Source of the DNA: a virus
DNA: 21,422 nucleotides
IMG/VR virus record: IMGVR_UViG_3300049893_000267
Location: 1 to 21,422 of that record
Direction: 5' to 3' (one strand)
The translations under genes were made by a program, and so were the position numbers. How positions within the stretch are numbered: position 1 is the stretch's first letter; each line of letters starts with the position of its first letter. Positions 6,115-11,718 of this stretch are shown one piece after another. The notes under the pieces are model-generated. The model saw nothing but the letters and a program-made list of their open reading frames with translations, searched no databases and was not told the DNA's origin.

Positions 6115-6350
6115 TTATACTTTCTTATTACTTCAAATGTCCTTTTAATTGCTGACCAATCAAGATGAGGTTCTTCACCATTCCTTACAGGATACCAAGC
6201 AAAGTTATATCCGTGGTTAGCATTGTAGTCCTCTGGGGATATTCTGTTACCATTAACGGTATGTAGATATATCCATGGTACATTACCCATAAGTTCTATG
6301 GTTATACCAATCTTCTTAAGACGGTTTACAAATACAGTTATCTCATTCAT
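6111..6350 (-). CDS. Small conserved-looking phage protein
   Basis: This 79-residue protein is of unknown function. Its N-terminal half, VNRLKKIGITIELMGNVPWIYL, looks like a helix followed by a beta-hairpin. The rest contains Trp/Tyr-rich segments (NFAWYP) and a final helix. The ATG is preceded by TAGGAGG five bases upstream, an unusually good Shine-Dalgarno for this region, sitting inside the end of the upstream gene. Its stop overlaps the ThyX start. I have the impression that short proteins of this pattern recur in Bacteroidetes phages, but no function is known to me. Confidence 0.7.
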   Translation of the reverse strand: MNEITVFVNRLKKIGITIELMGNVPWIYLHTVNGNRISPEDYNANHGYNFAWYPVRNGEEPHLDWSAIKRTFEVIRKYK

Positions 6351-6582
6351 CTTGACCTCCTAACTTTTCTATTTCTTGTTTCACTTCTTGCCAATAGAGA
6401 GAATTTTCAACTACATACTCTCTTGAATTATCTGCATACTTTATTATTTCCCATAATATCTCATCAACTGCTATTAAAGCGCATTGTTTGGCAACCATAT
6501 CTGATAATGTTGGTTGGCAGTTGTACATTATATGGTACATCATTTTATCAAATAACTCTTCTGCTTTTTCTTTTGGTGTCAT
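6343..6582 (-). CDS. Small helical phage protein
   Basis: This 79-residue, almost wholly helical protein begins KEKAEELFDKMMYH. Its central segment AKQCALIAVDEIL and ending YWQEVKQEIEKL are familiar from phages of Bacteroidetes, where function is unknown. Its ATG sits in the stop of the 47-residue gene upstream (ATGA). Its last codons supply the Shine-Dalgarno for the next gene. It is probably a small regulatory or host-interaction protein, but that is only a guess from size and place. Confidence 0.7.
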   Translation of the reverse strand: MTPKEKAEELFDKMMYHIMYNCQPTLSDMVAKQCALIAVDEILWEIIKYADNSREYVVENSLYWQEVKQEIEKLGGQDE

Positions 6583-6722
6583 TTCTTATGTTGTTTTGAT
6601 TCTTTGTTATTCCAATAAAATCTACTATAGTTTCTGTAGAACTTTATACCACATATAGTGTAGTTCCAAAATTCAACCCATCTATATTTAGATATTCTTA
6701 TAAATTCTGATAATCGTGTCAT
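6579..6722 (-). CDS. 47-residue basic protein
   Basis: This very small gene has good start and stop context. The ATG at 6722-6720 overlaps the TGA of the upstream gene. It has GGAGG six bases before it (read from the minus strand), and its own TGA overlaps the next ATG at 6582. The product is basic and aromatic-rich (RISKYRWVEFWNY, then YRNYSRFYWNNK), ending ESKQHKK. The pattern of coupling at both ends makes chance unlikely. No family is recognised; an amphipathic or nucleic-acid-binding peptide is possible. Confidence 0.65.
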   Translation of the reverse strand: MTRLSEFIRISKYRWVEFWNYTICGIKFYRNYSRFYWNNKESKQHKK

Positions 6723-6937
6723 TTGCTACCTCCGTATGTATTTTTATAGTAACTATTTGCTTCTCTTAATATACTTTCTCCATTGCCAACATGATTCATG
6801 TAACATTCTACATAAGCATCTTCAATCTCCTTTCGGTGCATTGCTTTGGCTTGCTCTAGTATCTCCATTGACACGTACCCGAGTTGTGCTGTTACGGATG
6901 CGAACCACTCAACACTACTTTGTTTTTTGTTACTCAT
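6719..6937 (-). CDS. Small phage protein of SSVEW type, unknown function
   Basis: This 72-residue protein starts MSNKKQSSVEWFA and continues with a long helix containing ILEQAKAMHRKEIEDAY. Short proteins with SSVEW near the start and an EQAKxM-type helix are, as far as I recall, common in phages of Bacteroidetes and have no assigned role. It is the first protein gene after the tRNA-like gene, about 44 bases away. It probably shares the message with the RNA or uses processing at the tRNA 3' end. Its stop overlaps the 47-residue gene. Confidence 0.75.
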   Translation of the reverse strand: MSNKKQSSVEWFASVTAQLGYVSMEILEQAKAMHRKEIEDAYVECYMNHVGNGESILREANSYYKNTYGGSK

Positions 6938-6980
6938 TTTTGTCTGTCTTTAGGGTTATAAAACATTACATATAATTTTG

Positions 6981-7069
6981 TAGTCAGGACAGGATTCGAA
7001 CCTGTATTCAGGGACTCAAAGTAAATTACCCCTCAGAGTTTGTATGGCTACCAATTTTGCCACCTGACT
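6981..7069 (-). tRNA. Class-II-length tRNA or tRNA-like gene with irregular anticodon arm
   Basis: The acceptor stem pairs AGTCAGG (7069-7063) with CCTGACT (6988-6982), seven of seven. The T arm ACAGG-TTCGAAT-CCTGT (7005-6989) is perfect. The D loop keeps ATTGGTA, and the length of 89 with 39 bases between D and T arms is that of a Leu/Ser-type tRNA. No five-pair anticodon stem around a seven-base loop can be built. Candidate loops read CTGAGGG (GAG, Leu), CTCTGAG (CTG, Gln) or CTTTGAG (TTG, Gln), none well stemmed. The D stem is also shifted (TGGC/GCCA). No CCA is encoded. It could be a degenerate tRNA or a tRNA-like processing signal for the large RNA upstream. Confidence 0.7.
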
Positions 7070-7070
7070 A

Positions 7071-7690
7071 TGTTACACCCGACTTTAGCTTGGTGTTGTG
7101 TGATAGCGTAGTCTCCTACCTAACACAGCTACTTGCAATAGTGGATATCACACCTGCAAGGGACTCCAGACTGGTGCGCTGATCTTATGGGTAGCGTTCT
7201 GGGTACAATCCTGTACATGGGTGACAACGGAACTTAGTGTTTGTTAATCAGTAGGGTAAACTGCCCTTCAAGCAGTGCACTTTGTTCTAGTCTGTGATCT
7301 CTGTAATTTAGTATTCACGTGGAGCCACGGGTTAATCACACCCGCTTGAAGATAGCTCAGACTATTGTTGTCATCCATGTATAAACCTGAGGAGATATTG
7401 TTGCAATCGCGTTAAGAGTACTGCGGATAAACCTCTCGGTACCATCTGGGTGATCATTTTCCTCTTGTTGGTCTTTTAACTCACTCCTTAATCTCATCTT
7501 TCATATTACGTTTTCTCAGATCAATCTCCTGCTTGTTCTACCCTGCGGCTGGGAAGGCACTTACTTAGGATTCGCAGATTCACTGGTACTAATAAGCAAA
7601 TACATTGAACTGTGGGAACCGCTCCCTCACATCTGATCTCTGTGTCAGCACACGCGGAGATTCGTTTGATACTATTGTAAATGAAAGAAT
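7071..7690 (-). ncRNA. Large ornate noncoding RNA candidate (GOLLD/ROOL-like in size and setting)
   Basis: No credible gene lies here. G+C is clearly higher than in genes: 32 of 60 at 7141-7200 against 19 of 60 at 7861-7920, counted by hand. Helices include 7636-7640/7657-7661 with 7642-7645/7650-7653 inside, 7612-7617/7623-7630, 7390-7396/7524-7530, 7288-7294/7358-7364, 7328-7332/7340-7344, 7260-7264/7272-7276, 7203-7207/7212-7216, 7132-7137/7155-7160 and 7075-7079/7092-7096. Two hairpins close GAGA (GNRA) loops only when read on the minus strand (7108-7119 and 7431-7440), fixing orientation. Two crossing pairings suggest pseudoknots. It abuts a tRNA-like gene. Phage GOLLD and ROOL RNAs are known to be this large and to lie near tRNAs; membership is not proven. 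The 5' end is approximate. Confidence 0.65.
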
Positions 7691-7699
7691 ATATGTCAA
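7669..7699 (-). promoter_or_regulatory. Weak promoter candidate for the large RNA
   Basis: On the minus strand, TTTGACA lies at 7700-7694 just after the cREC stop. TACAAT (7679-7674) and TAGTAT (7674-7669) follow downstream. The spacings (14 or 19) are not ideal and no exact TAnnTTTG box follows. The RNA may instead be read through from the cREC gene. Confidence 0.22.
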
Positions 7700-7704
7700 A
7701 GAAC

Positions 7705-8172
7705 TTAATTTTCTACTTGAGTCTCCATTTTAAATGGAGTAACCTTTAGATCAATATCCAAAGGACTATCAACCACTTTAGCAAAGTTATTGATATAGTG
7801 ATACATATTGCTGCAACCCACAGGGTTAGCACTATGAATCCTAACGATAGGGAATACAATAGGTTTTTGAGTTTCTTCATGCTTTTCAAACAAATAATCA
7901 CACAACCATTTTACACAGTCTAATCCTGTTTTTTCTTTGAATGTTTCATATTCAATAATATCAATACCGTTGTGTTGATTCTTGTAGAAATCCTTCATAT
8001 GTTCTAAACCTAAATCATGATCAAACGTGATAAAATCAGGAACATCGTTTTCTTGAATATAGTCAACAAATTCTTGGTAGTTTCTTACTACTACAAAAGG
8101 TTCATGCCCATCAAGGGTAATGATTGGAGTACGTATATCATCTAGATATAACGCTGTTTTTAATTTAGTCAT
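7705..8172 (-). CDS. Cyclic-phosphate-processing receiver-domain (cREC) protein
   Basis: This 155-residue protein has a receiver-like fold pattern. The acidic pair in YLDDIRTP is at residues 9-16, VVVRNYQEFVDYI follows, then FDHDLG at 50-55, GLDCVKWLCDYLF in the middle and HSANPVG at 113-119. This order matches the family annotated as cyclic-phosphate-processing receiver domain. That family was proposed from comparative genomics to act on cyclic phosphate ends in RNA repair or conflict systems and is frequent in phages. The acidic residues and the His are intact. It stands alone between a terminator (8219-8247) and the large RNA region. A one-mismatch -7 box (TAATATTG, 8195-8188) lies upstream of its ATG. 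Biochemical activity is inferred only from family. Confidence 0.75.
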   Translation of the reverse strand: MTKLKTALYLDDIRTPIITLDGHEPFVVVRNYQEFVDYIQENDVPDFITFDHDLGLEHMKDFYKNQHNGIDIIEYETFKEKTGLDCVKWLCDYLFEKHEETQKPIVFPIVRIHSANPVGCSNMYHYINNFAKVVDSPLDIDLKVTPFKMETQVEN

Positions 8173-10906: not shown

Positions 10907-11314
10907 TCAATAGTTAAACTTGATTAATCCCCAAAACAAAGAAAAACTTTTCTTCTTTGCTCTTGTCCTCGCAACAATAGGAGTAACCTGAGTTTCAGGT
11001 GCAAGATTTTTTGCAATTTCAATCTTTTCTAAATTGCGCTTTTTTGCCATCATACCATGATAGTTACAAGTTGATTTTCTAATCTTGTCACACATTCTAT
11101 CTGTTGGTGCATCACCAATCCAAATATACTTGTTACCATCTACTTTTTTAATGGATCCGTGTTTATACAAGAACATCATTACCATTGATGATACATTGTG
11201 TTCACGACATAAGTTAATTGCACCAACTGCTTTAGCGTTGTTTTTAGTTAACTCATAAAAGTTTTTAATAAACTTTCTGTAATTGTCAATTGACTTTTTA
11301 TCTGAAATTCTCAT
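10907..11314 (-). CDS. Basic protein, possible winged-helix DNA-binding
   Basis: This 135-residue, lysine/arginine-rich protein has a central part reading AKAVGAINLCREHNVSSMVMMFLYKHGSIKKVDGNKYIW. That suggests two helices followed by a beta-hairpin wing, as in winged helix-turn-helix regulators. This is a shape argument only. The tail is strongly basic (RTRAKKKSF). It is coupled to the zinc-protein gene upstream at 11314. It could be a transcription factor for the middle gene block, or a nucleic-acid-binding accessory protein. Confidence 0.6.
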   Translation of the reverse strand: MRISDKKSIDNYRKFIKNFYELTKNNAKAVGAINLCREHNVSSMVMMFLYKHGSIKKVDGNKYIWIGDAPTDRMCDKIRKSTCNYHGMMAKKRNLEKIEIAKNLAPETQVTPIVARTRAKKKSFSLFWGLIKFNY

Positions 11315-11718
11315 TACTCTGAAATTAAAATGTTATGTAATTTTCTAAACTCTATCTCTTGCTTAATTAGTTGTAGATGCCATTCAGCACCTCCATAATC
11401 TAGTATAGCTTGAAGATGATCATTTGTCAATTCTGCAATAGTTTTCCATTGCAATGGTTCAGTACCGTCTTTACCACGTGTACCTCTAGTGGCATGGTGT
11501 CTAACCTTTTCAAAAGGTTCATCTAAGTACACAGGAGTACTTACTACTTTTGTCATATCAACTCCACCATATCTTAGATATGATGTTCCTCCATCCACCA
11601 TTGATTTGTTATCACAACCGCAAGTTTTATAGTCATGACGGTGATGGGAGACAAGTATTTCTCCGCACCCTAAACAGAGTACGGAGTTATACACAATTTG
11701 TCTTTCTTTAGAAGGCAT
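11314..11718 (-). CDS. Small zinc-binding phage protein (CxxC-HD-CxC type)
   Basis: This 134-residue protein has an N-terminal metal site in the order CLGC, SHHRHDYKTCGC, then VDGGTSYLRYGG. The arrangement C-x2-C, H-x-H-D-x3-C-x-C with a following VDGG and Y-x-R is familiar from an uncharacterised phage family. The rest is helical with LNDH-like spacing (LTNDHLQAIL). I start it at the ATG at 11718 (MPSKERQ), which overlaps the AAA+ gene's last codons by 11 bases. A longer in-frame reading from 11823 would cover coding DNA of that gene and has no credible leader. The ATG at 11724 is an equal alternative. Confidence 0.7.
   Translation of the reverse strand: MPSKERQIVYNSVLCLGCGEILVSHHRHDYKTCGCDNKSMVDGGTSYLRYGGVDMTKVVSTPVYLDEPFEKVRHHATRGTRGKDGTEPLQWKTIAELTNDHLQAILDYGGAEWHLQLIKQEIEFRKLHNILISE

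What the first reader, a model, noticed from the sequence alone, without database searches (positions are those of the whole stretch)
7071..7700. Large ornate noncoding RNA candidate, GOLLD/ROOL-like setting
About 620 bases with no credible gene stand out by higher G+C and many complementary arms, with GNRA loops only on the minus strand. The region lies directly 5' of a tRNA-like gene in a phage-like genome. GOLLD and ROOL, large RNAs that are structured and phage-associated, are known to lie near tRNAs. I cannot tell whether this is one of them or an unnamed class.
Basis: partly seen in the sequence, partly recalled or inferred. Interest (0 to 1): 0.88.

Follow-up and report, generated by a model that had tools for sequence, protein, structure and literature searches.

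The report
Unnamed large RNA of aquatic phages
A stretch of phage DNA with no gene encodes a folded RNA of about 470 letters that is better conserved than the matched gene DNA around it, followed by a second undescribed RNA and a tRNA-like piece without an anticodon arm; none of this is in the RNA catalogues, and what it does is unknown.

Summary
In detail: 7071-7700 is non-coding, G+C-rich (0.437 against 0.347) and belongs to a minus-strand RNA locus. It is three things, not one. (1) LR, 7704-7210: about 470-495 nt, starting at a boxA-like antitermination sequence directly after the upstream stop codon. In a syntenic 126-kb phage contig LR keeps 88.6% DNA identity, while alignable coding DNA across the window keeps 64-77%. 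In its 3' domain the proposed pairs all hold in both sequences, three with compensatory double changes. (2) R1, 7206-7075: a pseudoknotted ~130-nt RNA, one copy per contig where found, in about 50 phage contigs, with strong covariation (17 of 29 pairs change on both sides). (3) 7070-6981 is not an ordinary tRNA but a tRNA-Leu-like frame whose anticodon region is replaced by a hypervariable insert; such elements occur in arrays in more than 100 phage contigs. Rfam has none of them beyond a weak tRNA hit; GOLLD and ROOL were tested and do not match. The GOLLD/ROOL-like setting is right, membership is not. Most likely mechanism: a boxA-headed untranslated RNA operon, cut at tRNA-like elements, releasing stable structured RNAs that act in trans. 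The function is inferred, not shown.

The parts
7693..7704 (-). boxA-like antitermination sequence GTTCTTTGACAT, directly after the stop codon (7707-7705) of the upstream gene; 5' limit of the conserved LR unit
   Evidence: Homology to G100 starts here. The 12-mer occurs in 21 distinct contexts in the fetched loci against 0.47 for shuffled 12-mers; 12 of 16 non-edge cases lie within 800 nt upstream of a tRNA T-arm motif. E. coli-derived consensus GYTCTTTAANA (PMC5725501).
7210..7704 (-). LR: unnamed large structured ncRNA
   Evidence: 88.6% DNA identity over 499 nt to G100 45276-45770, against 64-77% for alignable coding DNA of the same syntenic block; no ORF; no Rfam match.
7560..7600 (-). 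LR 5'-domain hairpin that is exchanged as a unit between window and homologue
   Evidence: Only long dissimilar stretch of the LR alignment; flanks identical.
7431..7504 (-). purine-rich LR block, about 70 nt, identical in both lineages
   Evidence: Alignment A2.
7214..7381 (-). LR 3' domain: outer helix 7381-7367/7228-7214; helices 7364-7360/7292-7288, 7340-7335/7298-7293, 7287-7278/7239-7230; hairpin 7276-7260; proposed pseudoknot 7352-7346/7271-7265
   Evidence: 98 of 98 cells paired in two sequences; 3 pairs with double changes, 2 with one-sided G-U-type changes that fit the minus strand only.
7075..7206 (-). R1: pseudoknotted structured RNA (P1, P2 7160-7155/7137-7132, P3 7126-7098, P4 7096-7092/7080-7075, pseudoknot 7131-7127/7090-7086)
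   Evidence: 36-sequence alignment: 97.3% of cells paired, 17 of 29 pairs with double changes, 107 double-change cells against 27 shuffled and 2-12 in slid controls; window hit 103.5 bits (the window is one of the model's own sequences).
6981..7070 (-). tRNA-like element: acceptor AGUCAGG/CCUGACU, D-arm and T-arm kept, anticodon and variable arms replaced by a unique insert (about 7043-7008)
   Evidence: Rfam tRNA 32.5 bits with anticodon arm not aligned; a different insert in the otherwise near-identical contig L002; family of 160 unique elements.
7705..8172 (-). upstream gene (phrog_1479 family, unknown function), same strand
   Evidence: 50% aa identity to its syntenic counterpart in G100.

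Best explanation
The locus is an untranslated RNA operon of a large phage, probably one infecting Bacteroidota. Transcription continues from the upstream minus-strand genes, or from an unmapped promoter, into a boxA-like sequence at 7704-7693, which loads host antitermination factors so that a long untranslated RNA is made without Rho termination (inferred). The transcript carries LR (about 470 nt), R1 (about 130 nt) and a tRNA-like element. RNase P and 3' tRNA processing cut at the tRNA-like element and release LR-R1 with a defined 3' end (inferred). LR and R1 are then stable, trans-acting structured RNAs, LR being a multi-domain scaffold-type RNA comparable in setting to GOLLD and ROOL (inferred). 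Shown here: non-coding conservation above that of genes, compensatory changes, the R1 helices, the boxA-like start, array context, and the exchange of whole hairpins between close relatives.
For: LR is more conserved in DNA than any alignable gene of the 21-kb syntenic block. Pair counts: LR 3' domain, R1 (P1 stem variants). G-U changes fit the minus strand in the LR 3' domain; in R1 the balance is only slight, 9 G-U against 5 A-C cells. R1 lies 4-8 nt after stop codons and directly before tRNAs, tRNA-like elements or start codons, one copy per contig. In G100, LR follows tRNA-Trp and leads an array of tRNA-like elements and further RNA modules ending in tRNA-Leu. The boxA-like 12-mer is strongly enriched at heads of such arrays. 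BLAST finds no LR, R1 or tRNA-like element in INPHARED phages, which fits their being undescribed.
Against: No expression data. LR has only two lineages, so covariation is thin: 3 double changes, and 61 of 500 shuffles reach the score. The plus strand of 7207-7700 folds better than shuffles (z -3.6) and the minus strand does not (z -0.6). The boxA sequence differs at one position from the E. coli consensus, and no promoter was mapped. R1 also precedes protein genes by about 20 nt, so a cis role is possible for it. Processing and a trans function are not shown.
Confidence: 0.6

Rival explanations
1. LR, R1 and the neighbouring modules are cis-acting leaders or processing elements (for example undescribed self-cleaving ribozymes, antitermination or exonuclease-blocking elements) for the tRNAs and genes downstream, not trans-acting RNAs.
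For: R1 ends about 20 nt before start codons or directly before tRNAs and tRNA-like elements; self-cleaving theta ribozymes are known next to phage tRNAs (PMC10879173); a pseudoknot is typical of ribozymes and of exonuclease-resistant RNAs (general knowledge).
Against: One copy of R1 per contig in front of unrelated genes; R1 matches no ribozyme family, and the strand order does not fit the HDV fold; LR is much larger than a processing element would need to be.
Confidence: 0.25
2. LR is a highly diverged GOLLD or ROOL RNA that the Rfam models miss.
For: Phage-borne, several hundred nt, next to tRNAs, multi-domain with a proposed pseudoknot: the setting described for both (PMC12286853).
Against: No match for either model in the window (E up to 10) or the homologue (E up to 5), with permissive filters on short input.
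Confidence: 0.08
3. The functional RNA of 7207-7700 is on the plus strand, antisense to the R1/tRNA-like transcript.
For: Plus-strand folding z -3.6 against -0.6; 19-bp plus-strand helix with four G-U pairs.
Against: boxA start, R1 and the tRNA-like element all read on the minus strand; in the homologue a plus-strand G-U pair of the long helix becomes A-A, and two helix changes are U-A/U-G on minus, that is A-C on plus.
Confidence: 0.08
4. Ordinary intergenic debris: a decayed tRNA region whose similarity to G100 reflects recent transfer.
For: Downstream genes and the tRNA-like insert are swapped between close relatives, so exchange is active here.
Against: LR sits at the same syntenic place in both phages and shows helix-preserving substitutions; R1 covaries across 36 sequences.
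Confidence: 0.04

Closest known systems
GOLLD RNA
   Same: Phage-borne large structured RNA near tRNA islands, with conserved and less conserved regions (PMC12286853)
   Different: About 470 nt against often over 800; no Rfam match at E up to 10; quaternary structure untested
ROOL RNA
   Same: Phage and prophage RNA near tRNA islands with several pseudoknots (PMC12286853)
   Different: No Rfam match at E up to 10; starts at a boxA-like site in a Bacteroidota-type phage, and is rare (two lineages found)
Theta (HDV-like) ribozymes of phages
   Same: Small pseudoknotted RNAs touching phage tRNAs (PMC10879173)
   Different: R1 lies 5' of genes, tRNAs or tRNA-like elements, and its strand order is that of a simple H-type pseudoknot with an inserted hairpin, not the nested HDV fold; cleavage not testable here
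tRNA-Leu (class II tRNA) and tmRNA
   Same: The tRNA-like element keeps a tRNA-Leu-like D-arm, T-arm and 7-bp acceptor followed by A; tmRNA also lacks an anticodon arm
   Different: Insert hypervariable and unrelated between elements, up to about 140 nt; no tag ORF called; anticodon arms no more frequent than in shuffled inserts
rRNA boxA antitermination leaders
   Same: GTTCTTTGACA resembles GYTCTTTAANA (PMC5725501) and stands at the start of untranslated RNA
   Different: Phage RNA array instead of rRNA; one position differs; Nus dependence untested

Membership tests
GOLLD | Match to the GOLLD covariance model | tested here: not met
   cmscan against all Rfam 15 families: no hit in 6960-7720 at E up to 10 or in L357 at E up to 5
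GOLLD | Phage/prophage location near tRNA island | tested here: met
   tRNA-like element directly 3'; tRNA-Trp, tRNA-Leu and tRNA-like array in the homologue
GOLLD | Cage-forming multimer, expression rising at lysis | not testable with these tools
   needs cryo-EM and RNA-seq
ROOL | Match to the ROOL covariance model | tested here: not met
ROOL | Homo-octameric nanocage | not testable with these tools
   needs cryo-EM
tRNA (element 7070-6981) | Acceptor, D- and T-arms | tested here: met
   Rfam RF00005 32.5 bits, gathering 29
tRNA (element 7070-6981) | Anticodon arm with a 7-nt loop | tested here: not met
   ARAGORN finds none; cmscan leaves the arm unaligned; family-wide frequency 16% against 14% in shuffled inserts
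tmRNA | tmRNA call with tag ORF | tested here: not met
   ARAGORN on the window: 0 genes; no Rfam tmRNA hit
HDV-like/theta ribozyme (R1) | HDV nested double-pseudoknot order and an Rfam HDV-type match | tested here: not met
   No Rfam match; strand order a-b-a'-b' with the two strands of the closing helix only 11 nt apart
HDV-like/theta ribozyme (R1) | Self-cleavage | not testable with these tools
   needs in-vitro transcription
boxA antitermination site | Match to the boxA consensus at the head of untranslated RNA | tested here: inconclusive
   10 of 11 positions of GYTCTTTAANA; enriched upstream of tRNA motifs; NusB binding untested

The most novel reading that the evidence does not exclude
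These uncultured aquatic phages carry an undescribed kind of RNA locus: boxA-headed arrays of structured RNAs in which a constant tRNA-Leu-like frame without an anticodon arm presents a large, recombining repertoire of structured inserts (160 unique elements in 119 insert clusters here), accompanied by R1 and sometimes by a large RNA such as LR. The repertoire would act against variable host targets, for example defence systems, rather than in translation.
Probability: 0.35. Interest if true: 0.93.

Novelty: new variant of a known kind. Interest (0 to 1): 0.82.

Why it matters
Few large structured bacterial RNAs are known (GOLLD, ROOL, OLE), and their functions are open. LR adds another phage RNA outside those families, with higher DNA conservation than its neighbouring genes. 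R1 is a compact, well-supported structured RNA that can be made and tested at once. The anticodon-less tRNA-like arrays raise a directly testable question: why phages would keep many tRNA frames that seem unable to read codons, with hypervariable cargo. They also mean that tRNA counts in phage genomes may include elements that are not tRNAs.

Tried and rejected
Single-sequence folding as evidence for the minus strand: rejected, z near 0. GOLLD, ROOL and every other Rfam family: no match. Coding explanation: no open frame. First idea of a Bacteroidota promoter at 7700: the TTG/TAnnTTTG pattern does not fit well and is common by chance; boxA is the better reading. Three 43-48-nt LR-like hits (L359, L362, L365) are coding DNA. 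The G006 R1 hit (19 bits) is not convincing. Several R1 pattern hits are tRNA-type genes or coding and were excluded. R2 model (LR 3' domain) over 50 contigs and 99 sources: only the two known copies. Literature searches for hypervariable tRNA-like phage RNAs found nothing, in an open-access library only.

Full report
Observation. The stretch 7071-7700 has no ORF of 60 aa or more on either strand, 11-13 stops in every frame, and the highest G+C of any 630-nt stretch of the window, apart from shifts of the same region (0.437 against 0.347). A tRNA-like match (Rfam RF00005, 32.5 bits) lies directly downstream on the minus strand, 7069-6981, but ARAGORN calls no tRNA. Single-sequence folding does not favour the minus strand (z -0.82; plus z -2.34; for 7207-7700, -0.64 and -3.58).

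Three parts. Homologues split the region. In contig IMGVR_UViG_3300016467_000502 (G100, 125,760 bp), window 7704-7210 matches 45276-45770 at 88.6% over 499 nt, and the match stops there. The rest of the window is syntenic with G100 30.0-53.4 kb, and the alignable coding DNA is only 64-77% identical. A non-coding segment that outranks the surrounding genes in the same pair of genomes is the strongest evidence here. Downstream, G100 has other modules and tRNA-like elements where the window has R1 and its own tRNA-like element. LR is thus a unit of its own.

LR structure. RNAalifold on the two sequences gives 132 minus-strand pairs, 5 with double changes and none broken, but the plus strand gives a similar count (139 pairs, 4 double), so this does not settle the strand. 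For the 3' domain I named a structure: 49 pairs including a pseudoknot, 98 of 98 cells paired, 3 pairs with double changes, slid controls 30-40% paired. Two further changes are U-A against U-G on the minus strand, which would be mismatches on the plus strand. Only two sequences exist, the structure was derived from them, and 61 of 500 shuffles reach the score, so this is supportive and not conclusive. One 5' hairpin (about 7600-7560) is exchanged as a block between the two phages.

R1. A 40-nt and a 24-nt piece of the window RNA recur in L005/L006, with a whole hairpin missing between them. A scan for CCAAGCTAAAGTCGGG gave 70 stretches, most of them a structured element. In 36 aligned sequences, 97.3% of cells pair, 17 of 29 pairs show changes on both sides, and 107 cells have double changes against 27 after shuffling and 2-12 in slid controls. 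The P1 stem alone has many different complementary versions. A scan that did not ask for the conserved loop found further copies that keep AGCTA[A/G]AGTCG, so that conservation is not only a search artefact. The pseudoknot pairs themselves hardly vary and so are not proven by covariation. R1 occurs once per contig in 30 of 50 contigs searched, with strong scores, beginning mostly 4-8 nt after a stop codon and ending before a tRNA, a tRNA-like element or a start codon. No Rfam family matches it.

The tRNA-like element. The interior differs: 160 unique elements fall into 119 insert clusters, 92 of them singletons; one insert family of 170-nt elements has 10 of 47 pairs with double changes, so at least some inserts are structured. 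Canonical anticodon arms are no more frequent than in shuffled inserts (16% against 14%), and ARAGORN of 147 with scattered anticodons. In L002, otherwise nearly identical to the window, this insert, the R1 P3 hairpin tip and the genes just downstream differ. The D- and T-arms resemble those of a tRNA-Leu-like gene in the G100 array; that E. coli LeuRS does not read the anticodon is general knowledge, so charging is possible but untested.

boxA. LR begins with GTTCTTTGACAT directly after a stop codon. The 12-mer is about 45 times more frequent in the fetched loci than shuffled 12-mers, and 12 of 16 non-edge cases precede a tRNA T-arm motif within 800 nt. It fits 10 of 11 positions of the E. 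coli boxA consensus GYTCTTTAANA (PMC5725501). This suggests that these phages mark untranslated RNA arrays with an rRNA-type antitermination site.

Interpretation. The setting is that of GOLLD and ROOL (PMC12286853), but neither model matches, so LR is not filed under them. Whether it works like them cannot be tested here. The most likely course is transcription through boxA, processing at the tRNA-like element, and trans-acting structured RNAs. The main rivals are a cis role and a self-cleaving element.

Limits. All sequence is metagenomic; the host is inferred from relatives (Chitinophagaceae MAG contig, Flavobacterium and Cellulophaga phage hits) and is uncertain. The literature library holds open-access papers only.

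Noticed in passing
L006:1323-2640, L113, L177, L202, L111, L157 (layouts): Arrays of tRNA-like elements with constant tRNA-Leu-like ends and hypervariable inserts, not found in INPHARED phages and nearly absent from GTDB genomes.
   Followed up: partly
L221 after R1, L006:1390-1510, L007:215-318, L357 after the first tRNA-like element: Another recurrent structured module (GUUGUUCCCUUGAGAAAGG ... ACAACACAGAGGACUUCUCAUCCUCAA) directly 5' of tRNA-like elements, not in Rfam output.
   Followed up: no
L357 after LR (about 2775-2880); L232 upstream of R1: A further module beginning about GUAGUACAGAUAG and ending GUUCUGUACUAC, present in two different arrays.
   Followed up: no
L230, L234, L275, L328 downstream of R1: A recurrent element with GCGGUGC...UUAUUGGUUGAGUAAACCGAUUGAACCG next to R1.
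   Followed up: no
window 6148-6929: The genes directly downstream of the tRNA-like element are replaced by a different block in the near-identical contig L002, marking a recombination hot spot.
   Followed up: partly
window about 10923-11322: A second patch of raised divergence between window and L002 inside otherwise near-identical DNA.
   Followed up: no
window 7723-7739: 17-nt palindrome-like hairpin CTCCATTTTAAATGGAG near the 3' end of the gene upstream of LR; windows there fold with z about -3 on both strands.
   Followed up: no
L006:2050-2465: An HNH-endonuclease-like ORF (by eye, MERFFDKVDKTDTCWLWT...) lies inside the tRNA-like array, as a mobile element would.
   Followed up: no
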